Source: Tenacibaculum todarodis
GTDB lineage: Bacteria; Bacteroidota; Bacteroidia; Flavobacteriales; Flavobacteriaceae
Reading direction: 5' to 3'
Assembly: GCF_001889045.1 (NCBI RefSeq)
Contig: NZ_CP018155.1
Coordinates: forward strand, 925,001 to 989,000
Length of the DNA stretch: 64,000 nt
The translations under genes were made by a program, and so were the position numbers. The notes beneath the pieces are model-generated. The model worked only from the letters and a program-made list of their open reading frames with translations, did not search any database and was not told where the DNA came from. How positions within the stretch are numbered: the first letter of the stretch is position 1; each line of letters opens with the position of its first letter. This document shows, one piece after another, positions 10,457 to 43,820 of the stretch.

Positions 10457-10487
10457 TTTGCCTCCAAATAGTTTACAACTATCTTTG
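10457..10487 (+). promoter_or_regulatory. mnmE promoter, perfect Bacteroidota consensus
   Basis: TTTG at 10457-10460, a 19-base spacer, then TATCTTTG at 10480-10487 (consensus TTTG-N19-TAnnTTTG). The start codon TTG at 10506 lies 18 bases past the -7 box, which rules out the in-frame TTG at 10458 as start. Confidence 0.85.
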
Positions 10488-10505
10488 CACATAAAACTAC
10501 CGATT

Positions 10506-11903
10506 TTGAATTCTAACTTTGACGATACAATTATAGCTTTGGCAACTCCGGCAGGTGTTGGCGCAATTTCTGTTATACGACTTTCTGGTAAAGAAGCAAT
10601 TAATATTGTTGCTCCGTTATTTAAATCGGTTAGAAACAAGGATTTATCTAAACAAAAAACGCACACATTACATTTAGGACATATTATTGATAATGAACGA
10701 ATTGTAGATGAAGTTTTGGTTTCTATTTTTAAAAACCCTCACTCCTACACTGGCGAAAATGTTATTGAAATTTCTTGCCATGGATCTAGTTTTATTCAGC
10801 AAGAAATTATTCAATTATTTCTGAAAAATGGTTGCAGAATGGCTGATAATGGCGAGTTTACAATGCGTGCTTTTTTAAACGGAAAGATGGATTTAAGTCA
10901 AGCTGAAGCTGTTGCTGATGTTATTGCTTCTAATTCTGAAGCAAGTCATAAAATGGCGATTCAGCAAATGCGTGGCGGAATTACCAATGAATTGAAGGAT
11001 TTACGCGCAAAATTATTAGATTTTGCTGCTTTAATTGAATTGGAACTCGATTTTTCTGGTGAAGATGTAGAATTTGCTGATAGGACTAAATTTAAGGAAT
11101 TGGTAACAAAAATCACTTTTGTTTTAAAACGTTTAATTGATTCTTTTGCTTTTGGAAATGCCATGAAAAACGGAATTCCTGTAGCCATAATTGGTGAACC
11201 AAATGTTGGAAAATCCACTTTATTAAATACACTTTTAAACGAAGAAAAAGCCATTGTTTCAGACATTGCTGGTACAACTAGAGATGCAATTGAAGATGAA
11301 TTAATTATTGATGGTGTTGCTTTTCGTTTTATAGATACTGCTGGAATTAGAGAAACTGAAGATGTTGTAGAAAACATCGGAATTAAAAAAGCGTATGAAA
11401 AAGCAGAAAATGCCCAATTAATTATCTTTTTAATTGATTCTAACAAATTTTCGTATGCTAAAGAAGATTTTTTAGCTGAAATTGAAACCATCCAAACGCG
11501 TTTTCCAAACAAACGCTTATTGGTAATTGCTAATAAAATTGACACCTTATCTTGTCATGATACTGCTGTTTTACAATCGGAAATAGAGAATTTAATTTTA
11601 CTTTCTGCTAAAAATAAAACTGGAATTGACGAACTTAAAACAGAACTTACTTCTCTGGTTAATATTGGTGCTTTAAGTAATAACGAAACTATTGTTACCA
11701 ATTCTCGTCATTTTGAAGCTTTAAATAATGCTTTAATTGCCATTACTTCTGTTCAAGAAGGAATTGATTTAGAAATTGGAACGGATTTGTTTTCAATTGA
11801 TATTAGAGAATGTTTACGTCACCTTGGTAATATTACTGGCGAGTATGATGTAGACAAAGATATTTTGGGTCATATTTTTGGGAATTTTTGTATTGGAAAG
11901 TAA
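10506..11903 (+). CDS. mnmE: tRNA modification GTPase MnmE
   Basis: With MnmG it makes the 5-carboxymethylaminomethyl group of U34 in certain tRNAs. N-terminal folate-binding domain (DDTIIALATPAGVGAISVIRLSG), helical domain, and an inserted G domain with GEPNVGKST (G1, about residue 230), AGTTRD (G2), DTAG (G3) and NKID (G4). The C-terminal FCIGK carries the catalytic Cys. The start is TTG 10506, set by the promoter; translation from there begins NSNFDDT. Its last 18 bases are the insertion target of the two islands that follow: the same codons recur at 27795 and 38377. Confidence 0.96.
   Translation: MNSNFDDTIIALATPAGVGAISVIRLSGKEAINIVAPLFKSVRNKDLSKQKTHTLHLGHIIDNERIVDEVLVSIFKNPHSYTGENVIEISCHGSSFIQQEIIQLFLKNGCRMADNGEFTMRAFLNGKMDLSQAEAVADVIASNSEASHKMAIQQMRGGITNELKDLRAKLLDFAALIELELDFSGEDVEFADRTKFKELVTKITFVLKRLIDSFAFGNAMKNGIPVAIIGEPNVGKSTLLNTLLNEEKAIVSDIAGTTRDAIEDELIIDGVAFRFIDTAGIRETEDVVENIGIKKAYEKAENAQLIIFLIDSNKFSYAKEDFLAEIETIQTRFPNKRLLVIANKIDTLSCHDTAVLQSEIENLILLSAKNKTGIDELKTELTSLVNIGALSNNETIVTNSRHFEALNNALIAITSVQEGIDLEIGTDLFSIDIRECLRHLGNITGEYDVDKDILGHIFGNFCIGK
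11886..11903 (+). repeat. att site, copy 1 (3' end of mnmE)
   Basis: TTTTGTATTGGAAAGTAA, encoding FCIGK-stop as part of the intact mnmE gene. Copies 2 and 3 keep reading frame and orientation and differ only at third codon positions or in the stop codon. This is the left boundary of island 1. SGI1-family islands in enterobacteria are known to use an 18-bp repeat at the same place in mnmE. Confidence 0.85.
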
Positions 11904-12504: not shown

Positions 12505-13611
12505 ATGAAAGTTACATTAAGAAAAAGAAAAAAGGGAAATAAGATAAGTTTATACCTCGACTATTATAGTAAAGGAAAAAGGCAATACGAATACTTGCAA
12601 CTTTATCTAATGCCTGAACCAGAGAATGGAAGTCTTACAAAACAGCAAAAAGATGAAAATAAAAAGATACTTCAATTAGCCGAAAGCATAAAAGCAAAAA
12701 GACATTTAGAAATTCACAATAGTATTTATGATTTTCAAGATAGCGAAAAACTAAAAGGTAATTTTTTAATGTACTTTGATACACTCACAGAAAAGAGAAA
12801 AGAAAGTACCGGCAATTATGGAAATTGGGATAGTGTTGGAAAACACCTTAAAAAATATTGTCCTAATGATATTACTTTCAGCAGAGTTAATAGAGAATGG
12901 GTTCAAGGCTTTAGAGATTATCTTGAAACAGAAGCAACTTCAAAAGGTGGCAAGCCACTTTCTCAAAATTCAAAATATTCTTATTTCAATAAATTAAGAG
13001 CAGCACTAAAACAAGCAGTTAGAGATGGTATAATGAAATACAACCCATCAGAACAAGTAAAAGCATTTAAACAAGGAGAAGTACAACGAGAATACCTAAC
13101 ATTAGAAGAATTACAAGCAGTAACTAAAGTTGAATGTGATATTAAGCCACTAAAAACTGCGTTTTTATTTTCTTGCCTTACAGGTTTAAGGTGGTCAGAT
13201 ATAAATAAATTGGTTTGGTCAGAGGTTCAGCATTCAGAACATATGGGAAACCATATTCGTTTTAGACAAAAGAAAACCAAAGGAGCAGAAACATTACCTA
13301 TTTCTCAACAAGCAAGAGATATGCTTGGAGAAGAAAAAGCATCAGATGAAAGGGTTTTTGTTGGTTTAAGATATAGTGCCTGGTATAATGTAAAATTGTT
13401 GCAATGGATGATGAGAGCAGGTATTACAAAAAACATAACGTTCCATTGTGCAAGACATACTTACGCTACGCTTCAGTTGTCTTTAGGTACAGACATTTAT
13501 ACAGTATCAAAATTATTAGGTCATAGAGAATTAAAAACAACTCAAATTTATGCCAAAGTAATAGATGATAAAAAGATTGAAGCAGCAGATAAAATTAAAT
13601 TAGACTTATAA
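12505..13611 (+). CDS. Tyrosine recombinase / site-specific integrase of island 1
   Basis: 368 residues, normal for Bacteroidota element integrases. N-terminal arm-binding region (KVTLRKRKKGNKISLYLDYY), SAM-like core-binding domain (about 95-195), then the catalytic domain: Arg in CLTGLRWSDINKL, HCARHTYATL (HxxR), LLGHRELKTTQIYAKV (H and nucleophile Tyr). All catalytic residues are present, so it should be active. It lies about 600 bp from the mnmE att site and is therefore the best candidate for recombination there. The next gene starts 2 bp after its stop. Confidence 0.93.
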   Translation: MKVTLRKRKKGNKISLYLDYYSKGKRQYEYLQLYLMPEPENGSLTKQQKDENKKILQLAESIKAKRHLEIHNSIYDFQDSEKLKGNFLMYFDTLTEKRKESTGNYGNWDSVGKHLKKYCPNDITFSRVNREWVQGFRDYLETEATSKGGKPLSQNSKYSYFNKLRAALKQAVRDGIMKYNPSEQVKAFKQGEVQREYLTLEELQAVTKVECDIKPLKTAFLFSCLTGLRWSDINKLVWSEVQHSEHMGNHIRFRQKKTKGAETLPISQQARDMLGEEKASDERVFVGLRYSAWYNVKLLQWMMRAGITKNITFHCARHTYATLQLSLGTDIYTVSKLLGHRELKTTQIYAKVIDDKKIEAADKIKLDL

Positions 13612-13613
13612 TT

Positions 13614-14684
13614 ATGGAACTTACAATATTTAAGAATATCATATACGGAGAATTAAAACCTTGGTCATCATCTGCGATTGATGAAAAGTTTTATAGAAAC
13701 AATCTACCTAAAGACTTTATACAGCCTGTAAAATCTATTAACAGTTATTACAAAGTTTTAAAAGAAATTCATAGTAGTAAAACAAATCTATTTAATGAAG
13801 ATGGTCTTGAAGTTTATATGGCTCAAAAAGATACAGATAGAAAAATAGAGATATTGCATCCTCTTGTAAAGTTGGATCTAAAAGAACCAACTTCCTCTAC
13901 ACAAAAATTCTATCATTATTTATTAAAGAACGAAACCACAAGATTAAGCAATCGTATTTTTAAGTGTATAAATAAACAGATAAGTGAAGTACAACAAAAA
14001 GAGATAATACAGAATGTAGTAAAATCTTGCAAAGACCTTTTATTAAGAATTGGAACAGATAGAGAGGATTTACCTAAAACAGAATTAACAGATTATGTAA
14101 TCCCTCAACTCATTACTAACGTAATTCGTTTGCTTAAAGAAACAGAATTATTATACCCAAGTTTATTACACGATTTACCTTCTGATAAATTGGTAATATT
14201 TGGCGAACTATTAAATACAGATATTCCAGATTATCAAATTGATGATACAACACCAGAGTTTACAACAGTAAAAAATATACTACTTGATATTGATAATTTT
14301 AAATTAGAAAAAGATGCACGTTTCTCTTTTGGTTTTTCTGGAGTAAAAGAAAATCTAAAATCAATACTATTTCTTTTACAAAGAGATATTGAGTTACTTA
14401 ATGAAGATAAAACCAGTACAGATGATTTATTAGCAATCTTTACAAGTAAAGATTTAACGATTGGTGCAAAACAAATTCATTTGTTTTGTGAAACAACACA
14501 ATTCAGTTATATCGTTTCAAAATTAGAAGAACATTTTACAAACTTCAATCCGACTACTATTGCAAATTCTAATCTGTTTTATTCAAAGAAAAATAACCTA
14601 ATTAGTAGAGGAAATTTATATAATAATAAAAGTCATAATCCTAAGAAAAAAGAAACCATTGACAATATTCTAAAACAACTATAA
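13614..14684 (+). CDS. Uncharacterised protein cotranscribed with the integrase
   Basis: 356 residues, not recognised with confidence. Mostly helical and hydrophilic, with no signal peptide or membrane segment. The C-terminal part (from about residue 235) has some flavour of RteC/DUF6617-like regulatory proteins of Bacteroidota elements, but I could not confirm it. Its position 2 bp behind the integrase stop makes an element maintenance or regulatory role likely. Confidence 0.6.
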   Translation: MELTIFKNIIYGELKPWSSSAIDEKFYRNNLPKDFIQPVKSINSYYKVLKEIHSSKTNLFNEDGLEVYMAQKDTDRKIEILHPLVKLDLKEPTSSTQKFYHYLLKNETTRLSNRIFKCINKQISEVQQKEIIQNVVKSCKDLLLRIGTDREDLPKTELTDYVIPQLITNVIRLLKETELLYPSLLHDLPSDKLVIFGELLNTDIPDYQIDDTTPEFTTVKNILLDIDNFKLEKDARFSFGFSGVKENLKSILFLLQRDIELLNEDKTSTDDLLAIFTSKDLTIGAKQIHLFCETTQFSYIVSKLEEHFTNFNPTTIANSNLFYSKKNNLISRGNLYNNKSHNPKKKETIDNILKQL

Positions 14685-15110: not shown

Positions 15111-15395
15111 ATGGGCTACTATCATCCATCACACGAAAAGTTAGAGCAAATAGAAGAACGTTTAGACGATTTACTTCTTATGCTCAAAGACAAGCAAAGA
15201 ACAAATCCTGACCAAGTATTTTTCGATACACAGGAGTTCCTACAAATTATGAATATCAGTAAACGTACAGCCCAACATTGGCGAGATAGCGGATTAATTG
15301 GCTACTGTCAGATAGGCTATAAAATTTACTATCGTCTTTCAGATATTCTCGAACTATTGAACAAGAATTTTAAATCTCCTACCAATGGGAAATAA
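15111..15395 (+). CDS. Helix-turn-helix protein, second of a pair
   Basis: 94 residues with a coiled N-terminus (EKLEQIEERLDDLLLMLKDK) and an HTH: FLQIMNISKRTAQHWRDSGLIGYCQIGYKIYYRLSDILELLNKN. It has the same architecture as the preceding gene and is probably an ancient duplicate with a related role. The next gene can start at 15385, overlapping its last 11 bases, which suggests coupled translation. Confidence 0.82.
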   Translation: MGYYHPSHEKLEQIEERLDDLLLMLKDKQRTNPDQVFFDTQEFLQIMNISKRTAQHWRDSGLIGYCQIGYKIYYRLSDILELLNKNFKSPTNGK

Positions 15396-17679
15396 ATCAA
15401 CAGAAATTATGGCATCATCAACAATATTCAAAAACTTTAACCAACCCATTGAAACTAAATCTTTGTTATTAATAACAAAAGATATAGTAGAGGGTAAATA
15501 TAAAGACTTAATCTCTCCTATTCGTATGGCGATAGGTATGGGAAAAGACGGCAGAGTAGATAATTTAAAAAAATCACTTCCTGCATTTACTCCATCAGGC
15601 ATTTTTGAAGGTGGTAGAAAAATGGAATACTTAAAAATGTATAGCGGTTTTGTGCATCTCGACTTTGATAAACTCTACCCAGACGAATTAGAAAAAGCAA
15701 CGAAAATTATAAATAATATTCCTTTCACTTTTGCTTGTTTCACAAGCCCAAGTGGTAATGGCCTAAAAGTATTTATTGAAATAAATACAGGCATAGAACA
15801 CCACAAAACGGCATACCAACAAGTTCAAGATTACTATGAAAAAGCAATAGGTATTGAAGCAGACCCAAAATGTAAAGACATTACTCGTTTGTGTTTTGTT
15901 TCTGATGATCCTAACGGATACAGAAACATCAACAATCAAAAATTCATAGTAGATATTGAACAAGTAAAACAACAAGAAATCAAACCAAAATCAACACCAA
16001 CTAAAACAATTCAAAATGATACTTCTACAACTTCAGATATATTTCAACAATGTATCCAATTCACCGAAAATAAAGCAACTTATATTGAAGGCAACCGAAA
16101 CAATTATATTTATCAATTGGCTTGTAACTGCAACAGGAGAGGTATTGTATTTGATGATGCTTTGCATCACATATCAAATACATACGACCTAAAAAATAGT
16201 GAGTTAAAAGCATCTGTAAAAAGTGCCTATACAAACAATAGTAATCAATTTGCAGAGTATCAAAATTACAATCAAAGTAACACCATTGCAACAAGTAGCA
16301 ATGTTATGCAACAGCAACCATCACAAGAGCCAATAGAAGATTATCTAAAAAACACACCAACCTTTGATAAAGATATATTTGAAAATCTACCAGATATTTT
16401 AAAAGAAGGTACAAGAGCATTTTCAGACGTAAGAGAAAGAGACGTTTTTTTTACAGGTGCATTAACTATTTTAAGTGGTTGTTTACCTAATGTAGAAGGT
16501 GTTTATGCACAAGAAACTGTTTACCCTAATTTATTTTCATTTATCATAGCACCTGCAGCAAGTGGTAAAGGTGCTTTAAAATTTGCTAAAGTATTGGCAG
16601 ACCCTTATCAAGAAAGAGTTTTAGAAGAAAGCAATAAGGAAAAACAAATCTATGATGCAGAATTAGCCGAATATAAAACAGCACAAAGAAACAGAAAAAA
16701 GAATGATGAAACAGTTGCAGAAGAGCCAATAAAACCACCTTTTAAAGTTGTTTTTATTCCTGCAAATACTTCGTATGCAGCAATATTAAAACACATTCAA
16801 CAAAATGATGCTAAAGGGATTATTTGCGAAACAGAAGCGGACAGTATGGGTGCAGTATTTAAACAAGATTGGGGTGGTTATTCTGATATGCTTCGCAAAT
16901 CATTTCACGGAGAAACAATATCTGTTTCAAGAAAAACCGATAACGAATATATAATAATCAAAGACCCAAAATTATCAGTAGCACTTTCAGGAACACCAGG
17001 ACAAGTTGCCAATATTATTTCATCAGCAGAAGATGGTTTATTTAGTAGGTTTTTATTCTATACTTTTAAGGTAGAGCAAAAATGGAGAGACGTATCGCCT
17101 TACGGCAATACTATCAATTTAAACGACCATTTCAAGGCATTGTCTAATATTGTATTACAATTAATAGATTTTCTACAAGCACAAAAAACAATCATTCGTT
17201 TAAGTAGAGAACAATGGGAAACAATCAACATAACAGGCGACCAATGGTTGAGAGAAGTAACCATCTTCACAAGTGAAGAAGCAAGTAGTGTAGTTAAAAG
17301 ATTAGGTTTAATATTATATCGTTTTACTATGATTTTTACAGCACTTCGTAAGTTTGAAAACGGAGATATGTCAGAAGAAGTATTTTGTACTGATGAAGAT
17401 TTTGAAATGGCTTTACATATTGCAAACGTATATCTACAACACAGTTTGCTAATGTATCATAACTTACCTAAGAAAGAAGAAACAGGTGTTTTTAAAGGGA
17501 AAAGTAATAAGAAAAAGTTTTTTGAGGCTTTGCCTAAAAATTTCAAACGAGAAGAAGCCATAAAATTAGGCATACAATACAAATTAAAATCTCGTTCTGT
17601 AGATGAATTACTTAAAAGCCTACTAAATACACTACTTACACAAACAAGTTTTGGGCATTACCAAAAAGTAAGTGTTTAA
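15385..17679 (+). CDS. BT4734/VirE N-terminal plus DUF3987 protein (primase/helicase-like)
   Basis: 764 residues from ATG 15385; ATG 15409 (MASSTIFKNF) is an equally good start. Residues about 40-195 match the BT4734-like domain, related to archaeo-eukaryotic primases (FVHLDFDKL, FTSPSGNGLKVFIEI, CKDITRLCFVSDDP). Residues about 335-690 match DUF3987, with a Walker-A-like APAASGKG near 390 and a CETEADSMGAVFKQDWGGY motif. Such proteins are typical replication or maintenance proteins of Bacteroidota integrative elements. The gene after it starts a separate operon, 108 bp on. Confidence 0.85.
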   Translation: MGNKSTEIMASSTIFKNFNQPIETKSLLLITKDIVEGKYKDLISPIRMAIGMGKDGRVDNLKKSLPAFTPSGIFEGGRKMEYLKMYSGFVHLDFDKLYPDELEKATKIINNIPFTFACFTSPSGNGLKVFIEINTGIEHHKTAYQQVQDYYEKAIGIEADPKCKDITRLCFVSDDPNGYRNINNQKFIVDIEQVKQQEIKPKSTPTKTIQNDTSTTSDIFQQCIQFTENKATYIEGNRNNYIYQLACNCNRRGIVFDDALHHISNTYDLKNSELKASVKSAYTNNSNQFAEYQNYNQSNTIATSSNVMQQQPSQEPIEDYLKNTPTFDKDIFENLPDILKEGTRAFSDVRERDVFFTGALTILSGCLPNVEGVYAQETVYPNLFSFIIAPAASGKGALKFAKVLADPYQERVLEESNKEKQIYDAELAEYKTAQRNRKKNDETVAEEPIKPPFKVVFIPANTSYAAILKHIQQNDAKGIICETEADSMGAVFKQDWGGYSDMLRKSFHGETISVSRKTDNEYIIIKDPKLSVALSGTPGQVANIISSAEDGLFSRFLFYTFKVEQKWRDVSPYGNTINLNDHFKALSNIVLQLIDFLQAQKTIIRLSREQWETINITGDQWLREVTIFTSEEASSVVKRLGLILYRFTMIFTALRKFENGDMSEEVFCTDEDFEMALHIANVYLQHSLLMYHNLPKKEETGVFKGKSNKKKFFEALPKNFKREEAIKLGIQYKLKSRSVDELLKSLLNTLLTQTSFGHYQKVSV

Positions 17680-17682
17680 AGT

Positions 17683-17757
17683 TTTTGCAAACTTTGCACC
17701 TTTTGCAAATATTGTTGTTGTTTTTGCTCTTGTTTGTTTTTAATTTGTTTATATTTG
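17683..17757 (+). promoter_or_regulatory. Promoter and repeat-rich control region of the defence operon
   Basis: TATATTTG (17750-17757) is a perfect -7 box; a TTG at 17730-17732 gives a 17-base spacer, slightly short. ATTTGT and ACAAAT flank the -7 box as an inverted repeat, a plausible operator for the XRE protein encoded 31 bp on. Upstream lies TTTTTGCAAACTTTGCACC and TTTTGCAAAT (17682-17710), a repeated TTTGCAAA palindrome that also occurs near 12294 and 25286. Confidence 0.5.
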
Positions 17758-17787
17758 ACAAATGCAATTTAAACAAATAAGCAAAGG

Positions 17788-18090
17788 ATGAATAAGTTTG
17801 GAGACTTAATAAGGTTTAAAAGAGAAGAACAAGAAATGCTACTCAGGCACTTATCCGCAGAGTTAGACATTGACACTGCAATGCTTAGTAAAATAGAAAG
17901 AGGAGAAAAAACAGCTAAACGTGAACATATACAAACATTAGCAAAACTTTTCAAGCTTGACTATAACGAGCTGTTTTCACTTTGGTTAGCAGACCAAGTA
18001 TTTCAGTTAGTGGAGAATGAAGAACAGGCGTTACGAGCTTTAAAAATTGCTGAAAAAGAGCTTAAATCAATAACTATGAAAAAAGATTAG
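17788..18090 (+). CDS. XRE-family regulator (restriction-modification controller-like)
   Basis: 100 residues. HTH_3 motif: FGDLIRFKREEQEMLLRHLSAELDIDTAMLSKIERGEKTAKREHIQTLAKLF, followed by a helical C-terminus. Proteins of this form commonly precede methyltransferase genes in Bacteroidota type II restriction loci and delay nuclease expression. The first methyltransferase gene starts 3 bp after its stop. It probably represses or times the operon through sites around 17740-17765. Confidence 0.85.
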   Translation: MNKFGDLIRFKREEQEMLLRHLSAELDIDTAMLSKIERGEKTAKREHIQTLAKLFKLDYNELFSLWLADQVFQLVENEEQALRALKIAEKELKSITMKKD

Positions 18091-18093
18091 ACT

Positions 18094-19134
18094 ATGATAG
18101 ATTTTAAGATAAAAGAATTAAAATCCGTAAACAACCCTAATTCTATACACGGTGTTTATCCTTATAGAGGAAAAATTTCTCCTATTGATGCTAATCAAAT
18201 ATTAGATCAGATACCTGCATATTCAAATTTGTTAGACCCTTTTTGCGGTTCAGGGACTATTGTTTATGAAGGTTTTAAAAGAAATATTAACACTTTAGGT
18301 GTTGACTTAAATCCTATTGCTTCTTATATCGCAGAAGGTAAAATTAGTGTTCCTTTTTCTTTAGAAAGTGTGCTTGATGAATGTAAATCATTTATAAAAA
18401 AAAGTGAAAAAATAAAATTAAAATTTGAAAAGAAGGAATCAGCATATTTTTTTCATAAAAATTCTCATAATCAAATATGTGCAATGGCTACATTTTTTGA
18501 AGAGATGTCTCCATATTTAAAGTCTTGCTTTTTTGGTGCAATTGCGTTAACTGCAAGAGGTTGCAACCATTATAAATGGACATCAAGTACAGTTGGTAAA
18601 AATATAGAACCTAAGCGTGATATTGATTTTTTTGAAAAATTATTACATAAAGTAAAAAAACATCATTTTCCTTTAGAATCAAGCTCTAACTCTAAAATAA
18701 TAAAATGTGATGCTCGTAAACTAAGTTCTAAAATTGCTCCAAATTCAATAGACTATGTATTTACAAGTCCACCATATTTTGATTGTTTGGATTACACAGC
18801 ATACTATGCTAAAATCATATATTCTATTTTAGATATTAATAGGTTAGAAATAAAAGCAGATTTAATACAGTCATTCAAGTCATATGAAGAAGATATGTCA
18901 AATGTTCTTAAAGAATTATATACCGTTTGTAAAAATGGAGCACAAATCATTTTTGTAGTTGGCGATAAAAAAGTAAAAGGAAAAGTAATTAATGGTGCAA
19001 AGTTTTTCAACAACATAAGCCCTTTTCAAAGCACAGAAATAATAGAGAGAGAATATACAGGCACAAGTTCACAAGTGTTTGATAAATTAAATAAAACAAA
19101 TAGAAAAGAACAAATAATTATATGGACAAAATAA
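18094..19134 (+). CDS. DNA methyltransferase, motif I before SPPY (N4-cytosine/N6-adenine type)
   Basis: 346 residues. The N-terminal HGVYPYRGKISP is followed by the SAM-binding motif DPFCGSGTIVYEGF (about residue 49) and, near residue 225, the catalytic TSPPYFDCLDYT. SPPY is typical of N4-cytosine enzymes and some N6-adenine ones. The order I then IV puts it in a different class from the next gene. It overlaps the second methyltransferase gene by 13 bases. Two methyltransferases of opposite motif order suggest an asymmetric recognition site, one enzyme per strand. Confidence 0.85.
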   Translation: MIDFKIKELKSVNNPNSIHGVYPYRGKISPIDANQILDQIPAYSNLLDPFCGSGTIVYEGFKRNINTLGVDLNPIASYIAEGKISVPFSLESVLDECKSFIKKSEKIKLKFEKKESAYFFHKNSHNQICAMATFFEEMSPYLKSCFFGAIALTARGCNHYKWTSSTVGKNIEPKRDIDFFEKLLHKVKKHHFPLESSSNSKIIKCDARKLSSKIAPNSIDYVFTSPPYFDCLDYTAYYAKIIYSILDINRLEIKADLIQSFKSYEEDMSNVLKELYTVCKNGAQIIFVVGDKKVKGKVINGAKFFNNISPFQSTEIIEREYTGTSSQVFDKLNKTNRKEQIIIWTK

Positions 19135-19949
19135 ACGATTCAATAGTAATCAATGATGCAAAAATTTTCTTTAAAAACTCAACTAATATGGCTGAGATAC
19201 CTTCATCATCGGTTAACTTAATTATAACATCACCACCTTATTGGACTTTGAAAGACTATGAAAATGAAGATCAAATTGGATTGGGTAGTTCTTCTTATGA
19301 ATATTATTTAAGTGAATTAAATAAAGTTTGGCAAGAATGTATTAGGGTATTAGCTCCTGATGGTAAAATCTGTATTAATATAATGCCTTTTCTTTTAACA
19401 GGTAAAGCAGCCCGTTTTAAAAGAAGAGAAACAAGATTAGTTTTAGGTGATATTGAGAGATTTATGGATAGCACCAAAGAAATGTATCAATTTGGCTTAT
19501 ATATATGGGATAAAAGAAAAATAGCTCGCTTTAGTTCTTTTGGCTCATACCCATATCCCCCAAACCTTTTTTCTACATATCCTTATGAATGGATAACTGT
19601 TTTTTCTAAACAAGGAAAAAGACCAAAAGTGTCTAAAGAAATAAAAGAAAAATCAAAATTAACTACTAAGGAATGGCAGGATTGGGCTATTAATTCCATT
19701 TGGGAAATGCAACCAGCAAGTGCAAAAAGAGAAAAGCATCCAGCACCTTTTCCTGATGAAATGCCCAAAAGATTAATAAGATTGCATAGTTTTTATGGTG
19801 ATACTGTACTTGACCCTTTTTTAGGTACCGGAACAACGGCTAAAGTAGCTTTAGAATTAGGTCGTAAGGCAATTGGTTATGAACTGAATAGAGAATATGA
19901 ACCTTTAATTACTAAAAAATTATTATCCGTAGAAGAATGCGTGTTATAA
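19122..19949 (+). CDS. DNA methyltransferase, beta-class motif order (SPPY before motif I)
   Basis: 275 residues. TSPPYWTLKDYENEDQIGLG near residue 36 is motif IV. DPFLGTGTTAKVALELGRKAIGYELN near 230 is motif I. This order is the beta class, common among N4-cytosine and N6-adenine methyltransferases. PAPFPDEMPKRLIRLHSF just before motif I is the usual motif X region. It protects host DNA in a restriction-modification system together with the preceding enzyme. The next gene overlaps its end by 13 bases. Confidence 0.88.
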   Translation: MDKINDSIVINDAKIFFKNSTNMAEIPSSSVNLIITSPPYWTLKDYENEDQIGLGSSSYEYYLSELNKVWQECIRVLAPDGKICINIMPFLLTGKAARFKRRETRLVLGDIERFMDSTKEMYQFGLYIWDKRKIARFSSFGSYPYPPNLFSTYPYEWITVFSKQGKRPKVSKEIKEKSKLTTKEWQDWAINSIWEMQPASAKREKHPAPFPDEMPKRLIRLHSFYGDTVLDPFLGTGTTAKVALELGRKAIGYELNREYEPLITKKLLSVEECVL

Positions 19950-20410
19950 AATTAAATGTTAATGCAAATCTTATTGATGTATCAAATAATAAGGATTCAG
20001 GTAAAATAAGAGAATATATTGATTTAGGTGTAAAATCTAAAAAACAAGCTGATTTAATTATTTCATTAGCTGGTACAATATCAGAAAAAGAGAATGAATT
20101 TGTTGGTATTGAAACAAAATACTTATTTGGTAAAAGAGATAAGAGATTTGAAATTGTATTTAAAAAGGATAAAATAATTAACATAATAAAAATTTCTAAA
20201 CAAAAAAAGTTTGATAAAGATGCAATTGAATTAGATATAATAATTTCAGATATGGCTGAAAGATATAATCTTACAGTAAATGGTATTGTATTATTAACTG
20301 ACCATTTTGATTTAGTATTAACAGAAAAATACTCAACTAATTTGAAAAATTCAATAGAGATTGTAAGCTACAATAAATTTAAAGAAAAGTATGTCATATC
20401 TAATAAATAG
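19937..20410 (+). CDS. Uncharacterised small protein in the defence operon (possible PD-ExK fold)
   Basis: 157 residues, not recognised. No membrane segment. ADLIISLAG (Asp39) followed by FVGIETKYLF (Glu59-Thr-Lys61) is spaced like a PD-(D/E)XK active site, but it is the only support for a nuclease and could be chance. The rest is Lys-rich. It overlaps both neighbours (13 and 20 bases), so its expression is tied to the methyltransferases. It could be a nuclease subunit or an accessory specificity factor. Confidence 0.55.
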   Translation: MRVIKLNVNANLIDVSNNKDSGKIREYIDLGVKSKKQADLIISLAGTISEKENEFVGIETKYLFGKRDKRFEIVFKKDKIINIIKISKQKKFDKDAIELDIIISDMAERYNLTVNGIVLLTDHFDLVLTEKYSTNLKNSIEIVSYNKFKEKYVISNK

Positions 20411-21578
20411 AAACCCTCCAGGAAGATTAGAATGCCTTCATAATCTTTGTAAATTTATATCAAGTAAATACAATTTAGGTGATACATTTAATATGAAAGA
20501 TATTAAGTATGATTCCTCTGAAGATAATATATTAAATCATTGTAGTTTACTAAAGTCAAACAGTCTATTGAATATTAAGTATTGTCCTTATAAGGATAAT
20601 CCTTTAAATACTTCTGGTTGCTCATTAACTAATGGTGTAAATGATGATACTACAAAGTCTAAAGAAATAAGCAATACTGTAAATGCTTTAGATGCATTAG
20701 GATTTTTGCTTAGAAGAAAAAGAAATATTCAAATCACACATCAAGGATTACTTTTCGCAAAAACTGAGTACAATTCAATTGAAATGCTTAAAATCATTAG
20801 AAATGCAGTGTCTGGTTATGGTATGTTTATAGGTTTTCTTGCACAAATAAAGTTATTAGGAAAAAACAGTTTTGACACAAATGAAATAACCTTAGGTTAT
20901 CCAAATTCTAATGAAAAAATATTATATGAAGGTAACACTATTATTATATCAGGTGGTTCTGAGAGTGATAGCAATACAAGAACAAAATCTTGTCTGTTAG
21001 CTTGGGGCATATCTTGCGGTTTTTTTATTCCTGAAAATTTAGATGATGACAGTTATAATGCTGACACTTCATATCAAGTAGTAACAAGAACTTATACTCT
21101 TGCAAAAAAACGCAACTTAAGAAAATACAAAGTAACAAACTTTCCTGACCATCTATTTACTGGGAATCATATTGTTAAAAAGCCATTAGATTATAACAAT
21201 TTAACGAAAAATACAGGAGCACTTCGCGAAAATAATCAAGCAAAAATTAGAGAACTTACATTAAAAGTAGAACCAAAAATAAAAAACCGTAGATATGCAA
21301 TAATCTATGCCTTGAATAAAGCCTATTTAGAAAAATCAACACTTGATTTTGATAGTTTAATTAATTTTTTAAACGATTATCCTGAACTATTTATTGTTAA
21401 TCAAGAGACTTTTGAAGATGTTATGTATTCTGAATTAAATATTGCATTTATGGTAGGCACACCTTTTTCTGTTAGTGATAATAATGAATTAAAGCCTCTT
21501 GTAGGGGTAGATATGGTAGAGGTAAGTTTAGGTGCTCCTATAGGTTTAATTAATGCTATGAAAAAATTCAATATATGA
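20391..21578 (+). CDS. Uncharacterised defence-operon protein, possible winged-helix DNA-binding subunit
   Basis: 395 residues, not recognised. The N-terminal 70 residues contain several Cys (CLHNLC, NHCSLL, KYCPYK, SGCSL). Residues about 95-125 (ISNTVNALDALGFLLRRKRN then IQITHQGLLFAK) look like a winged helix. The remainder is mixed alpha/beta without a recognisable active site. It overlaps the next (nuclease) gene by four bases (ATGA), the tight coupling expected of subunits of one complex. A target-recognition subunit for the nuclease is the simplest guess. Confidence 0.55.
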   Translation: MSYLINRNPPGRLECLHNLCKFISSKYNLGDTFNMKDIKYDSSEDNILNHCSLLKSNSLLNIKYCPYKDNPLNTSGCSLTNGVNDDTTKSKEISNTVNALDALGFLLRRKRNIQITHQGLLFAKTEYNSIEMLKIIRNAVSGYGMFIGFLAQIKLLGKNSFDTNEITLGYPNSNEKILYEGNTIIISGGSESDSNTRTKSCLLAWGISCGFFIPENLDDDSYNADTSYQVVTRTYTLAKKRNLRKYKVTNFPDHLFTGNHIVKKPLDYNNLTKNTGALRENNQAKIRELTLKVEPKIKNRRYAIIYALNKAYLEKSTLDFDSLINFLNDYPELFIVNQETFEDVMYSELNIAFMVGTPFSVSDNNELKPLVGVDMVEVSLGAPIGLINAMKKFNI

Positions 21579-22576
21579 ATGAAAATAAATACTGTCCACA
21601 TATTTACGACACTTCATTACCACCCTGTATAAGTTTAGGTGTTGTTAAATATAATTACTTGAAAGATCTTTTGAATAATAATAAAGGCTCTAACCAAGAA
21701 TTAATGATTGCTCATTCAATTGAATGTATTGAGTTTAAAGATAAAGCTATTGATATAAAAAATGAGAATTGTATCAATTGTATGTATTGCGTTTTCGGTT
21801 GTCCAGGAAACAATATTGAGATAGATAATAAATTTAAACTTTCAGCTTTATGTTCTGATTTTAAGAGTGATTATGAAAATCGACTCAAACAGGAAACCTT
21901 AGATGAACTATTTAATGGCTCTTTTATAAAATTGCCGAAAATAAGGTTGGCTCAATTCAAAGTTAAATACAAATCTTTTTCTGACTTTACTTCTGTAGAT
22001 GAAACTAAAAATATATCTGTTTGGGGTGCTAATAGCTTGAAATTCTTGTCAAAATCTTCAAATCCTCAATTAGGTCTTGAAATCGGGATGAATATTAAAT
22101 CAAGAGATAGAGGTGGTCGTTTAGATATATGCTTACTAAATAAAGGTGTGTTATTAGTAGCAGAAGCAAAAGTTAGCTTTTCTAAGATGATGAATGAAAA
22201 TAGATATTTGTCCCAAATGATTGCTTACGAAGAGGAGATTTTATCAACATTAGAAAAAAATGATGATAACATAAAACATTATAAATTCTTACTTATAGGA
22301 GGTAATGAATCAGACTTGTTACCACCAACACATCCTGAATGCACTTCTAATGTAGGGGATCAATCTTCACTTTTTTATAAGAATTGCTTAGATAATAATA
22401 TTTTCTTTATCAGTGCTAATGCAATTTTATCTCTTGGGATTAAGAAAGTTTTTTTTGGAGATAACTACTCAATTGAAAACTTATCAAAAACTATATTTTC
22501 GCCAACCAATATTGGGTTATTATCATCCGGTTTAATCCAAAAAGATTTCAAATTAAAACCTTTAATTGTTAAGTAA
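21575..22576 (+). CDS. PD-(D/E)XK nuclease with an N-terminal ferredoxin-type Cys4 motif
   Basis: 333 residues. Cys66, Cys69, Cys72 and Cys76 followed by Pro form CxxCxxCxxxCP, the classic [4Fe-4S] motif. The C-terminal half has a nuclease core: Glu170 (LGLEIGM), Asp184 (GGRLDICLL) and Glu197-Ala-Lys199 (VAEAKV), the E...D...ExK pattern of PD-(D/E)XK enzymes. It is probably the DNA-cleaving enzyme of the operon, either the restriction endonuclease or an effector for the Argonaute encoded 7 bp downstream. Cas4 and AddB pair Fe-S clusters with this fold, but with a different Cys spacing. Confidence 0.75.
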   Translation: MNENKYCPHIYDTSLPPCISLGVVKYNYLKDLLNNNKGSNQELMIAHSIECIEFKDKAIDIKNENCINCMYCVFGCPGNNIEIDNKFKLSALCSDFKSDYENRLKQETLDELFNGSFIKLPKIRLAQFKVKYKSFSDFTSVDETKNISVWGANSLKFLSKSSNPQLGLEIGMNIKSRDRGGRLDICLLNKGVLLVAEAKVSFSKMMNENRYLSQMIAYEEEILSTLEKNDDNIKHYKFLLIGGNESDLLPPTHPECTSNVGDQSSLFYKNCLDNNIFFISANAILSLGIKKVFFGDNYSIENLSKTIFSPTNIGLLSSGLIQKDFKLKPLIVK

Positions 22577-22583
22577 TATGTAG

Positions 22584-24635
22584 ATGGAAAACCTTACATT
22601 AAATATAATCCCATTCAGCCATCCAGTTCAAGAACTGGAGATAGGCTTTTATAAGCAAGAGAAACAAGGCTATTATTCACTTTGGAAAGGAGAATATCCT
22701 CAATCTTTTTGGGAAGATTTTAATGATGAAATGAAAGCGTGTGATAAATTATACACGAACTTTAAAGACACAGAAAATTGTGACTATAAAACAAAAGTAG
22801 ATTATTCAAAAAACAAACGTTTAGCAGTACATTATTATAGCAGGTTAATCTACAATTACTTCGTAACTGTAGCAGATGCAGTTAAGATTAATTTTGTTAA
22901 AGACGTGCAAATATGGTTTATAGATAATAGAAAAACCACATCTGTTTATACTTCGTATAAACGATTTACCATAAAAGTACAATTCAATAAAGTAACAGAG
23001 TTTCCAGAATTATTAGTTTCATTTGATGGCAATACAAACGTTTTAAACAAGTCTTTATCAGAATTAGATGATTTCCCACCAGAGTTAATAAACTACGTTA
23101 AATTCAACACTAAAATAGTAAAATACGAATATGCAGAAGAAGATATAAAGCAACATATAGAAGAACTATATCCAATCCTATCAAATAGAATTAGAGATTT
23201 TTTACAAATTCCAAGACCTGCATTTTCAAGAGGTAATAAATACAAGCCTTACTATACAAACATAATAGACTTCTATAATAATTACTTAAACACTAAAGCG
23301 TTTAAAGAAATTATTCCTTTAGATGATAATGGGTTTCATCAAATGCCTGAACACAAAGTGTTCAGTACATCTGCCAATTCTAATAAACTACGTTTTTATA
23401 ATGGCACAGACATAGTACCTCATAATGGTATGAAAAATAAAGGACCATATAAATCAAGTCCTCACGCAAGCGTTCGTTTCTTTTTTATTTATCATCAACC
23501 AGATAGGTCATTTGCGGTTAAAACACTTTACAAGTATTTTACTGAAGGCTACAAAGCACCAAATGGAAACTTATATTTTCAACCCTTAAAAACCTATATA
23601 AAACAACCTTTTATAATTGATAGAGATACAAGTATTGCTTATGAAAATACTGATACTGCATTAAAAGAAATAAAACAAGGTTTGTTAAATCTTGAAAAGC
23701 AACCCAATACAAGATATGTAGCAATTTATGTTACACCAATTCATAAAACAGAAACGGACGAGCAGAAGAAAATGCTCTATTATCAAATAAAAGAAGAATT
23801 ATTAAAACACGAAATCAGTTCACAAGTAATCTATAAAGAAAATATAGGTCATAAAAACTTTAGTTTTTACTTACCTAATATCGCTATTGCTCTATTAGCC
23901 AAAATAGATGGTATTCCTTGGAGATTAGATAGAGATACCAAAAACGAATTAATAGTTGGTGTTGGTGCTTTCACTTCGTTAAATCACAACATCAAATATG
24001 TAGGTAGTGCATTTTGTTTTAATAATAATGGAGAGTTTAAAGGTTTTGATTGTTTTAAAGCAGATGAAACAGATTTATTAGCAGGAACAATTGGCAAACA
24101 AATTTTAAAGTATGTTATAGATAATGATAAAGAAGCAGATAGGCTAATTATTCATTTCTATAAGAAAATGGGTAATAAAGAGTTAAAACCTATTATGAAG
24201 ATGCTAAAAACATTAGGTTTAAGCATTCCTGTAGTTATTATTACAATTAATAAAACCACATCAGAAGATAATGTTGCTTTTGATACAAATAGTAATGAAT
24301 TAATGCCTGTTAGTGGTACTTATGTAAAAATTGGTTGGGATCAATACTTATTGTTTAATAATGTAAGATACAGAGAAAATGAAATAGTAAAGGACAATCC
24401 ATTTCCTGTAAAACTTACTTTCACTTCTACGATAGATGGCTATTTTGATGATAGAACAGTAATAGAAGAATTAATAGACCAAGTGTATCAATTTAGTAGA
24501 ATGTATTGGAAATCAGTAAAACAACAAAATTTACCAGTAACTATAAAATACCCAGAAATGGCAGCAGAAATATTTCCATTTTTTGAAGGAGATAAACTTC
24601 CAGACTTCGGTAAAAATAATCTTTGGTTTTTATAA
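22584..24635 (+). CDS. Long prokaryotic Argonaute with a degenerate (slicing-dead) PIWI site
   Basis: 683 residues, full-length pAgo size. MID domain about 375-445 (YYQIKEELLKHEISSQVIY, NIAIALLAKIDGIPWRL is diagnostic) and PIWI about 455-683, ending in NNLWFL. Against the DEDD tetrad of active pAgos: the first Asp (VGFD in TtAgo) is Gly461 in VGVG, the glutamate finger is not seen in LLAGTIGKQIL, the third (RDG) is Tyr526 in HFYKKM, the fourth is Glu658 in KYPEMA. It should bind a guide and target without cutting. Inactive long pAgos elsewhere act with partner nucleases or membrane effectors; the gene before it is a nuclease. Last gene of the operon. Confidence 0.9.
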   Translation: MENLTLNIIPFSHPVQELEIGFYKQEKQGYYSLWKGEYPQSFWEDFNDEMKACDKLYTNFKDTENCDYKTKVDYSKNKRLAVHYYSRLIYNYFVTVADAVKINFVKDVQIWFIDNRKTTSVYTSYKRFTIKVQFNKVTEFPELLVSFDGNTNVLNKSLSELDDFPPELINYVKFNTKIVKYEYAEEDIKQHIEELYPILSNRIRDFLQIPRPAFSRGNKYKPYYTNIIDFYNNYLNTKAFKEIIPLDDNGFHQMPEHKVFSTSANSNKLRFYNGTDIVPHNGMKNKGPYKSSPHASVRFFFIYHQPDRSFAVKTLYKYFTEGYKAPNGNLYFQPLKTYIKQPFIIDRDTSIAYENTDTALKEIKQGLLNLEKQPNTRYVAIYVTPIHKTETDEQKKMLYYQIKEELLKHEISSQVIYKENIGHKNFSFYLPNIAIALLAKIDGIPWRLDRDTKNELIVGVGAFTSLNHNIKYVGSAFCFNNNGEFKGFDCFKADETDLLAGTIGKQILKYVIDNDKEADRLIIHFYKKMGNKELKPIMKMLKTLGLSIPVVIITINKTTSEDNVAFDTNSNELMPVSGTYVKIGWDQYLLFNNVRYRENEIVKDNPFPVKLTFTSTIDGYFDDRTVIEELIDQVYQFSRMYWKSVKQQNLPVTIKYPEMAAEIFPFFEGDKLPDFGKNNLWFL

Positions 24636-38190: not shown

Positions 38191-38376
38191 TATAAGGCCT
38201 GAATGTTCTTTTTTTTGTATCATTCGGATGCTTATAGAATATGATTACAATCAAAGATTGTAAACTGATAAAAATTAATTTTTATTATTAATAAAGTTAA
38301 ACAAAAGAAAGAATAATCTTACATCTTTACTCCATATAACTGCTCTACAAATACTGATTTTACTAAGGTTATTACT

Positions 38377-38394
38377 TTCTGTATTGGGAAGTAA
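38377..38394 (+). repeat. att site, copy 3 (right end of island 2)
   Basis: TTCTGTATTGGGAAGTAA encodes FCIGK-stop, same orientation as mnmE, two synonymous differences from copy 1. Identity to the mnmE end extends a few bases past the stop (20 of 23 at 38376-38398). A terminator and the convergent slipin gene follow, probably the original downstream neighbourhood of mnmE. Confidence 0.82.
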
Positions 38395-39538: not shown

Positions 39539-39597
39539 TTTTTTTAATTTTTTATTCTGAAAACTTTCTTTTTTTAATTTCAGAATGGTTCAACATA

Positions 39598-39770
39598 GAT
39601 TCCTGTTTTCACAGGAAAGACAATTTATAGGAAGCTTTAGATAAAAATCTAAAGAGCTTTTCCTTTTTTAACAATCTCTGTAACGGAGAAATATGTTCTT
39701 GATTCCCATTTTCATGGGAAAGACAATTTTTATGATACTTTAGTAAAACACTAAAGTGACTATTTTTTAT
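39598..39770. repeat. Two hairpin modules between slipin and the tRNA-like array
   Basis: GATTCCTGTTTTCACAGGAA at 39598 and GATTCCCATTTTCATGGGAA at 39701 each end in AGACAA. Each is followed within about 25 bases by a second hairpin (CTTTAGAT-AAAA-ATCTAAAG; CTTTAG-TAAAACA-CTAAAG). The same two-hairpin arrangement recurs at 43759-43820. They belong to the dispersed family seen at 120-184. Confidence 0.6.
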
Positions 39771-40018
39771 TTAAAAACGACACGTTAAAATCTCAACAAA
39801 TCACGAAAATTAACAATCTAAAAAAAGGCTATAATTTGTTTTGAAAAATGGGTTGAAATCTATAAAAGGAATCAACTGATTTGTAAAAATTTATTACTTT
39901 CTAATTTTAGAATTGAAAACTTCAAGTTCTTTTTTAAGTGTTCAATTAAGAACTCATTTAGAACGTATCGTTTTCTTTTTTTGGTCATCAGTTTTACAAG
40001 GTGATGAAACTTGGTTTG

Positions 40019-43572: not shown

Positions 43573-43758
43573 TAAAATTTTAAAGTATTTTACTGACAAT
43601 CAACTAGTTATATTGTTTTTAGATAATAGGATTCCTGTCCGCTTTTGTGCAGATATTGTGAGTTTAGACAACTCTTTGAATGTTTGATATGTAGGGAATA
43701 CTTACACGATATATTGGCATCTAATGGTTTTTGATAAAAGTGAAAATAAATTTTCACT

Positions 43759-43820
43759 GGATTCCCATTTTCATGGGAATGACAACTTTAATTGTTCTCT
43801 CAATTATAAATTGAGAGGAT
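43759..43820. repeat. Third two-hairpin module of the RNA-repair locus
   Basis: GGATTCCCATTTTCATGGGAA at 43759 followed by TGACAAC, then CTCTCAATTATAAATTGAGAG (43797-43818) and a T-run. It has the same arrangement as the modules at 39598 and 39701. It lies in the 848-bp gap between the rtcB2 gene and the partner gene of the second rtcB; the rest of that gap holds the leader features listed separately. Confidence 0.55.

What the first reader, a model, noticed from the sequence alone, without database searches (positions are those of the whole stretch)
17788..24635. Seven-gene operon joining a restriction-modification-like set to a dead long Argonaute
XRE regulator, two DNA methyltransferases of opposite motif order, two unknown proteins, an Fe-S-motif PD-(D/E)XK nuclease and a long pAgo are encoded with overlaps or gaps of 20 bp or less. 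I know of no described system with this composition. One model: methylation marks self DNA, the 395- and 333-residue proteins recognise and cut unmodified DNA, and the Argonaute uses the resulting fragments as guides to bind invader DNA and recruit the nuclease. A second model: a type II restriction system that simply shares a promoter with an independent pAgo.
Basis: partly seen in the sequence, partly recalled or inferred. Interest (0 to 1): 0.88.

Follow-up and report, generated by a model that had tools for sequence, protein, structure and literature searches.

The report
Swappable restriction slot beside dead Argonaute
On a mobile DNA element that inserts next to the gene mnmE, a control gene and a non-cutting Argonaute frame a slot that here holds one restriction-modification system and in relatives holds quite different ones or nothing, which hints at what this little-studied kind of Argonaute works alongside.

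Summary
The seven genes are real and tightly packed, but do not look like a dedicated seven-gene system. Five of them (two methyltransferases, a 157-aa protein, R395, R333) form a separate type II restriction-modification (R-M) set, found in 15 other loci, 0 of 15 with the Argonaute in the DNA held. R333 is predicted to fold like the BspD6I/FokI cleavage domain. The pAgo is a catalytically dead long-B Argonaute fitting the branch that Song 2023 left unexplained.

New here is the arrangement. Of 47 pAgo loci from 46 genomes, 19 have R-M genes upstream of pAgo, of types I, II, IIG and III; in 14 of these 19 the block starts with the same XRE regulator family. Eleven loci are XRE-pAgo with nothing between. 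Methyltransferases lie upstream on the same strand in 17 of 47 loci, downstream in 1. A related genome carries the same element with a type III system there.

Best reading: an XRE-controlled, exchangeable defence operon on an mnmE-integrated element; R-M and pAgo are separable modules under one switch. Whether pAgo uses R-M products is open.

The parts
10458..11903 (+). mnmE (trmE), chromosomal gene beside which the element is integrated
   Evidence: Pfam MnmE_helical 2.7e-48, TrmE_N 1.1e-42; mnmE homologue beside the integrase in 21 of 46 other loci
12505..13611 (+). tyrosine integrase of the element
   Evidence: Pfam Phage_int_SAM_5 4.9e-25, Phage_integrase 1e-17; homologue in 27 of 46 other loci
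13614..14684 (+). DUF6617 protein of the element backbone
   Evidence: Pfam PF20322 1.1e-25
15385..17679 (+). BT4734-like/DUF3987 protein (VirE-N/primase type), element backbone; 7th gene upstream of pAgo
   Evidence: Pfam PF13148 1.2e-66, PF08800 6.4e-33; homologue in 34 of 46 other loci
17744..17763 (+). operator-like sequence overlapping a promoter-like TATATTTG, just upstream of the XRE gene
   Evidence: TGWCAAVT found in 27 of 28 XRE start regions, null mean 0.7, maximum 4 in 500 resamplings; motif chosen after looking
17788..18090 (+). XRE-family controller heading the operon
   Evidence: HTH_3 1.7e-6; 67% identical to the XRE directly before pAgo in L030 and 41-43% to the XREs before the same R-M set in L002-L004
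18094..19134 (+). M1, DNA methyltransferase (FxGxG before SPPY)
   Evidence: N6_N4_Mtase 3e-10, PADLOC MTase_II 2.8e-21
19122..19949 (+). M2, DNA methyltransferase (SPPY before FxGxG)
   Evidence: N6_N4_Mtase 9.1e-47; PDB 2zie 1.1e-39, DNA cytosine-N4 methyltransferase 8s9m 2.4e-16
19937..20410 (+). p157, small protein of the R-M set, function unknown
   Evidence: homologue detected in 8 of 15 stand-alone R-M loci by BLAST; no confident family
20391..21578 (+). R395, probable DNA-recognition subunit
   Evidence: 153 homologues; profile matches the FokI recognition region at E 0.034 only
21575..22576 (+). R333, probable cleavage subunit, PD-(D/E)XK with N-terminal Fe-S-type Cys motif
22584..24635 (+). 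long-B pAgo, PIWI catalytic site lost, guide-pocket residues kept
   Evidence: PDLC02385 6.8e-286; Gly461 and Y399/K403/Q414/K440 invariant in the 18 rows aligned
11885..11903 (+). mnmE 3' end, candidate left attachment core
   Evidence: TTTTTGTATTGGAAAGTAA
38376..38394 (+). candidate right attachment core, direct repeat of the mnmE 3' end with 2 mismatches
   Evidence: 2 matches in the window at up to 3 mismatches; 4 of 100 shuffles give at least as many

Best explanation
This is the cargo operon of an integrative element inserted at the 3' end of mnmE. An XRE controller switches the operon. Behind the controller is a slot that holds an exchangeable defence system, and the operon ends in a catalytically dead, guide-binding long-B Argonaute. 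In this copy the slot holds a complete type II R-M system: two methyltransferases (inferred: one per strand of an asymmetric site), and a nuclease split into a probable recognition protein (R395) and a cleavage protein with a predicted BspD6I/FokI fold (R333). The R-M part works alone as ordinary restriction. The pAgo is a separate module that is co-expressed. Shown here by comparison: the modularity, the slot, the shared controller family, the loss of a PIWI catalytic residue. Predicted by model: the R333 fold. Inferred: restriction activity, control by the XRE, guide binding by the pAgo, and a second defence layer that acts when restriction fails.
For: The five-gene R-M set recurs in 15 other loci found by a pattern scan, 0 of 15 with pAgo in the DNA held; 12 of the 15 carry M1, M2, R395 and R333 (one R333 cut by a contig end, one locus with split ORFs), and the other 3 start or end at contig edges. 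pAgo homologues: 47 loci in 46 genomes, none of the other 46 with R395/R333 in the DNA fetched. Slot content of the 47: R-M genes 19, XRE-pAgo with nothing between 11, XRE-other-pAgo 4, remaining 13. The XRE family heads the R-M block in 14 of the 19, and an operator-like motif is near the XRE start in 27 of 28 loci whatever the cargo. L053 (same genus) has the same element at 0.89-0.99 identity up to the VirE stop and 0.94-0.99 from just after the pAgo stop on (0.87 in the last bin), but in between a different XRE allele, a type III Mod/Res pair and a different pAgo allele. L108 and L109 have nearly the same pAgo ORF (0.89-1.00) while the flanks are at 0.30-0.49 upstream and 0.45-0.68 downstream; one has an empty slot and the other a type I system. 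In the same genus, of 25 genomes with an XRE match but no pAgo match, 9 loci were fetched, and in 7 of 9 R-M-like genes follow the XRE (at once in 5, after one or two other genes in 2).
Against: The association is not random: methyltransferases lie upstream on the same strand in 17 of 47 loci against 1 downstream, which could mean function as well as a shared promoter. In the L053 comparison XRE, R-M and pAgo differ together as one block, so they can travel as a unit. No effector is known for this pAgo branch, so a lone dead pAgo in the 11 empty-slot loci is hard to explain. 13 of 47 loci fit neither pattern. The close protein relatives of R395 (P0001, P0003-P0013, 83-90% identical) and of the pAgo (P0241-P0244, 79-88%) sit on contigs whose neighbourhood I did not read (the one close pAgo with readable context is L052, 87%), so some of them may carry both. 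The loci are related to one another, so the counts are not independent events.
Confidence: 0.7

Rival explanations
1. Functional coupling. The dead pAgo is a general partner of R-M systems: restriction fragments (or transcripts of the invader) supply guides, and pAgo then marks or blocks related invader DNA or recruits the R-M nuclease, so any R-M type can fill the slot.
For: R-M genes of types I, II, IIG and III lie upstream of this pAgo in 19 of 47 loci; 17 of 47 upstream same-strand against 1 of 47 downstream for methyltransferases. Residues recalled as the guide pocket are kept in the 18 rows aligned. Some upstream genes abut the pAgo start: the windows printed for L093, L094, L105 and L109 show TAATG there. 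Other pAgos take guides from cleaved DNA (recalled).
Against: 11 of 47 loci have XRE-pAgo with no R-M between. R-M sets occur without pAgo elsewhere. The R-M types have unrelated nucleases, so one protein contact for all is hard to imagine (inference).
Confidence: 0.2
2. Plain defence-island clustering: the genes are neighbours only because defence genes accumulate in the same island.
For: The element is an integrative element with a variable cargo region. Two of the 19 R-M neighbours (G1094, G1246) belong to the SIR2-bearing branch, with no VirE or XRE detected.
Against: Random clustering does not predict an upstream, co-directional bias (17 against 1), the same XRE family in front (14 of 19), or homology that starts within 35 bp of the pAgo start codon in 10 of the 13 pairs that I chose to compare.
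Confidence: 0.07
3. A dedicated seven-gene system in which all seven parts evolved together.
For: Seven genes in one tightly packed operon; XRE, R-M and pAgo differ as one block between the window and L053. Close relatives of R395 on unread contigs could hold the same set.
Against: The exact combination was seen only in the window: 0 of 15 R-M loci have pAgo and 0 of 46 other pAgo loci have this R-M set in the DNA held. R395 was found only in the window's own genome among 146 genus and 299 family genomes.
Confidence: 0.03

Closest known systems
Long-B pAgos of the og_54 (VirE-N) branch, Ryazansky 2018 / Song 2023 (PMC6299218, PMC10620215)
   Same: Inactive long pAgo with a VirE-N-type gene usually 2 to 8 genes upstream; here it is the 7th gene upstream. 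Song 2023 states that function and mechanism of these pAgos need to be addressed by future studies.
   Different: The section and passages I read do not describe the slot, the XRE controller or exchangeable R-M systems. Ryazansky 2018 mentions R-M components among proteins of pAgo operons but found no defined operon composition for long-B pAgos (passages).
BPAN (long-B pAgo plus RecB2 nuclease, E. coli EcBPAN), PMC10620215
   Different: bAgaN is encoded downstream of pAgo, and coevolution with it is suggested. R333 is upstream, belongs to a stand-alone R-M set, and was not seen in the 46 other pAgo loci.
BspD6I / FokI type IIS restriction endonucleases
   Different: Recognition and cleavage apparently lie in two genes, the cleavage protein carries an Fe-S-type Cys motif, and there is an extra 157-aa protein.
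Controller (C) protein regulated R-M operons
   Same: Small XRE gene in front of R-M genes; PADLOC Control_protein match at 0.0019.
   Different: The same XRE family sits in front of R-M types I, II, IIG and III, of pAgo alone, or of both.

Membership tests
Type II R-M system | methyltransferase and endonuclease genes linked and conserved together | tested here: met
   M1, M2, R395 and R333 linked in 12 of 15 loci, the other 3 at contig edges
Type II R-M system | intact PD-(D/E)XK catalytic residues | tested here: met
   D184, E197, K199 invariant in the 25 rows aligned
Type II R-M system | site-specific cleavage prevented by methylation | not testable with these tools
   needs enzyme or methylome assays
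FokI/BspD6I-type endonuclease | cleavage domain fold | tested here: met
FokI/BspD6I-type endonuclease | FokI-like recognition domain | tested here: inconclusive
FokI/BspD6I-type endonuclease | recognition and cleavage in one polypeptide (as in FokI) | tested here: not met
   R395 and R333 are separate genes in the window and in the loci that show both
Long-B pAgo | PIWI domain with lost catalytic residues | tested here: met
   Gly461 invariant in the 18 rows aligned, also Gly in EcAgo and 6d95/5awh; the other catalytic positions were not checked against an active enzyme
Long-B pAgo | guide 5'-end pocket of the MID domain (Y-K-Q-K, motif recalled) | tested here: met
   Y399, K403, Q414, K440 invariant in the 18 rows aligned
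Long-B pAgo | guided nucleic-acid binding | not testable with these tools
   needs purification and sequencing
og_54 branch of long-B pAgos (Song 2023) | VirE-N gene usually 2nd to 8th gene upstream of pAgo | tested here: met
   15385-17679 is the 7th gene upstream; PF08800 match (identity of PF08800 with VirE-N recalled); rule. The window pAgo was not placed on Song's own tree
BPAN | bAgaN nuclease encoded downstream of pAgo in the same operon | tested here: not met
   no ORF of 80 aa or more between 24636 and 25721; the next one is DUF6943
BPAS | SIR2 protein downstream of pAgo | tested here: not met
   absent directly downstream in the window; present in L099, L110 and L117
BPAM | trans-membrane protein downstream of pAgo | tested here: not met
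   no ORF of 80 aa or more within 1 kb downstream

The most novel reading that the evidence does not exclude
A branch of dead long-B Argonautes has no dedicated effector of its own and instead works as a universal add-on to restriction-modification: whatever R-M system is swapped into the XRE-controlled slot provides the cuts or fragments that load or trigger the Argonaute, so the pair forms a two-step defence with exchangeable specificity.
Probability: 0.2. Interest if true: 0.88.

Novelty: new variant of a known kind. Interest (0 to 1): 0.6.

Why it matters
Song 2023 leaves the og_54 long-B Argonautes without a known function or mechanism. The comparison made here names a recurrent neighbour class (R-M systems of four types), a likely controller, and a mobile element that carries them in changing combinations. 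Closely related natural pairs with and without R-M beside nearly the same pAgo (L109 and L108) make the question of coupling directly testable by gene deletion. It also shows how an integrative element can carry interchangeable restriction systems behind one regulator.

Tried and rejected
Rejected: BPAN membership for R333 (wrong side of pAgo, and R333 belongs to a stand-alone R-M set). The small gene overlapping the pAgo stop in nine loci (L030, L034, L104-L109, L111) was considered as a pAgo effector: the nine are homologous to one another and read by eye as Fur-family regulators, with large genes behind several of them that I take for efflux pumps (neither tested by family search), so probably metal cargo of the element. 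The window's DUF6943 showed no BLAST match to them at E 1e-3. Searches that gave nothing: pAgo in the plasmid collection at E 1e-20, R395 in viral contigs. The viral scan for pAgo gave one locus, L029, which has a helicase-like gene upstream. R395 has no model, so its fold is untested. PMC7641849 was opened for Argonaute passages; the 12 shown concern eukaryotic Piwi proteins and were of no use.

Literature: six searches on this arrangement listed no paper that describes it; some listings are capped (25 of 40 shown, 10 of 12, 12 of 113) and I saw titles and abstract beginnings except for the papers named. A seventh was on BspD6I, FokI and iron-sulfur. The held library is open-access only, without preprints. 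In the passages read, Makarova 2009 reports a general statistical link of pAgo neighbourhoods with R-M, Abi, CRISPR and TA genes in combination.

Correction made on the way: BLAST segments suggested that window/L053 identity ends 31 bp before the XRE stop and resumes inside pAgo. The alignment profile shows that the real change of identity is at about 17.7 kb (just after the VirE stop) and about 24.6-24.7 kb (pAgo stop). The other BLAST breakpoints may overrun in the same way. The Poisson value assumes random placement and is not used as a probability. A first operator pattern matched only 8 of 31 regions; the one reported was drawn up after that.

Rows dropped before counting: 50 genomes had a pAgo match; four (G1151, G1183, G1306, G1321), whose matches were short, held stops or were split, were left out, leaving 47 loci in 46 genomes. 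G354 (454-aa ORF) was kept. The tree has 46 rows: it includes viral L029 and leaves out G354 and G1055.
Full report
Observation. The two methyltransferases have opposite motif order. R333 has a ferredoxin-like Cys motif and a D...ExK nuclease site, invariant in the 25 rows aligned. The pAgo belongs to PADLOC family PDLC02385 over its full length. It has Gly at the first catalytic position (placement recalled) in the 18 rows aligned, as do EcAgo and the 6d95/5awh protein, while four residues that I recall as the guide pocket (Y399, K403, Q414, K440) are invariant.

Two modules. A pattern scan with the R395 alignment over one genome per species found 15 loci; it used two short peptide patterns and is not exhaustive. 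M1, M2, R395 and R333 stand together in 12 of 15, and the other three start or end at contig edges. p157 was detectable by BLAST in 8 of 15. None of the 15 has a pAgo in the DNA held, which is up to 10 kb on each side; 11 of the 15 hold at least 2.5 kb behind R333. The record titles span Bacteroidota, Gammaproteobacteria, a Nealsonbacteria and an archaeal MAG; several are MAGs, so the labels are uncertain. Within 146 genomes of the window's genus and 299 of its family, only the window's own genome has R395. Conversely, pAgo relatives were found in 12 of 395 order genomes, 12 of 146 genus genomes, 11 of 395 phylum genomes, 13 of 166 genomes of another family and 10 of 169 of another order, with overlaps. 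None of the 46 other loci kept carries R395 or R333 in the DNA fetched; some stretches are short. Close protein relatives of R395 (12 clusters at 83-90% identity) and of the pAgo (four at 79-88%) lie on contigs whose neighbourhood I did not read; the longest contig lengths given for the two groups do not coincide, which is only a weak hint that they are apart. The one close pAgo with readable context, L052 (87%), has no R-M genes on its short contig.

The slot. In the 47 pAgo loci (46 genomes) the DNA upstream and co-directional holds R-M genes in 19: type II in the window, G048 and G188 (AlwI); IIG in G256 and G483; type III in G484, G913, G1165 and G1273 contig 49; type I or type I-like, including fused or partly identified sets, in G930, G974, G1455 (no R subunit identified), G1426, G1391, G1219, G1234 (by Pfam hits and gene sizes like those of G1219), G1256, G1094 and G1246. 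In some of them other genes stand between the R-M genes and pAgo. In 11 loci an XRE gene lies 5-22 bp before pAgo with nothing between. In 4 an XRE is followed by something else and then pAgo (AlbA_2 protein in G449, 107 aa in G330, 182+355 aa in G370, PADLOC PDC-S05 in G1273 contig 58). The remaining 13 fit neither, among them contig edges and one with a methyltransferase downstream (G526). The XRE family heads the block in 14 of the 19 R-M loci. Not so in G256 and G913 (none detected), G1273 contig 49 (contig ends), and G1094 and G1246 (none detected), which lie on the branch with SIR2 proteins downstream.

A test of direction. Pfam PF01555 and PF02384 were sought in the 46 genomes. Within 12 kb of pAgo, a methyltransferase lies upstream on the same strand in 17 of 47 loci, downstream on the same strand in 1, upstream on the other strand in 1, and downstream on the other strand in 0; random placement would give 1.11 loci on either side. 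These two families miss the sets of G188 and G1391. The loci are related to one another, so this is descriptive, but simple clustering does not predict the bias. On a pAgo tree of 46 rows, with 19 R-M rows against 11 empty-slot rows, the label needs 5 changes where shuffled labels need 9.1 on average: it is clustered, yet has come or gone several times. Some long branches make parts of that tree unsure.

Exchange seen directly. Genome G484 of the same genus carries the same element. Identity is 0.89-0.99 up to the VirE stop and 0.94-0.99 from just after the pAgo stop on (0.87 in the last bin), but only 0.68-0.80 over the XRE stretch and 0.51-0.81 over the pAgo stretch, and a type III Mod/Res pair stands in place of the R-M set. 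So XRE, R-M and pAgo differ as one block there. In another pair, L108 and L109, the pAgo ORF is at 0.89-1.00 while the flanks fall to 0.30-0.49 upstream and 0.45-0.68 downstream (the downstream neighbours are homologous small genes, 48% identical as proteins); one locus has an empty slot while the other has a type I system. In 10 of the 13 pairs that I chose to compare by BLAST, homology begins within 35 bp of the pAgo start codon; the exceptions are the window/L053 pair, a pair sharing the 374-aa gene before pAgo, and a pair in which both slots are empty.

The controller. The window's XRE is 67-72% identical to those of L030 and L053 and 41-43% to the XREs that precede the same R-M set in L002-L004, so it is probably the element's own. 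The XRE profile matches an XRE in 3 of 11 stand-alone copies of this R-M set that were tested (L002-L004). An operator-like motif (TGWCAAVT, chosen after looking) lies near the XRE start in 27 of 28 loci whatever the cargo. Among 138 genus genomes, 35 have an XRE match at E 1e-10, 25 of them without a pAgo match. I fetched nine of the strongest of these, and in 7 of 9 R-M-like genes follow, at once in 5 and after one or two other genes in 2; the assignments rest on BLAST to a few representatives at 22-40% identity. So this XRE family looks like an R-M controller that also heads pAgo. Control itself is inferred.

The element. mnmE (10458-11903), a tyrosine integrase (12505-13611), DUF6617, HTH_17 genes and a BT4734/DUF3987 protein precede the operon. 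In the other 46 loci an mnmE homologue was found beside the integrase in 21, the integrase in 27 and the VirE-type gene in 34; many fetched stretches are too short to show all of them. A direct repeat of the mnmE end lies at 38376-38394 (4 of 100 shuffles give at least two such matches), a candidate right end.

Place in the literature. Song 2023 (one section and passages read) defines BPAN, BPAS and BPAM, with effectors downstream of pAgo, and leaves an og_54 (VirE-N) branch unexplained; the window fits that branch by its gene order. Ryazansky 2018 (passages) lists R-M components among proteins of pAgo operons and found no consensus. Makarova 2009 (passages) reports a general statistical link of pAgo neighbourhoods with defence genes. 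I found no description of the slot in six searches of the held open-access library.

Verdict. The combination is real but composite: a portable type II R-M system in an exchangeable, XRE-headed slot before a dead long-B Argonaute. The window's set is one of many fillings. That the pAgo and the R-M act together is possible and untested.

Noticed in passing
window 11885-11903 and 38376-38394: Direct repeat of the mnmE 3' end, a candidate attachment-site pair that would make the element about 26.5 kb; the conserved block of L053 ends near a similar sequence at L053:15184.
   Followed up: partly
L052 (G449), 558-2609 and 2629-3942: The closest pAgo relative with readable context (87% identical) is preceded not by R-M genes but by an AlbA_2/HATPase protein; a pAgo homologue fused to such domains also exists (P0329).
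   Followed up: partly
L033 922-3003 and L103 10560-12623: GmrSD-type (modification-dependent) restriction genes lie directly downstream of pAgo (Pfam for L033; 62% identity to it for L103), so that pAgo stands between two kinds of restriction system.
   Followed up: no
L118 10395-11555 and L127 5581-6765: PrrC-like anticodon nuclease genes inside the type I systems that fill the slot.
   Followed up: no
L105 2393-8347 and L109 10667-16621: Type I-like systems with a 708-aa PADLOC candidate protein (PDC-M38A, tested in L109) and a 290-aa protein between HsdS and HsdR, in front of pAgo in two genomes.
   Followed up: partly
window 39586-39777 and 43748-43792: Copies of a 45-nt repeat around GATTCCCATTTTCATGGGAA, unexplained.
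   Followed up: no
   Followed up: no
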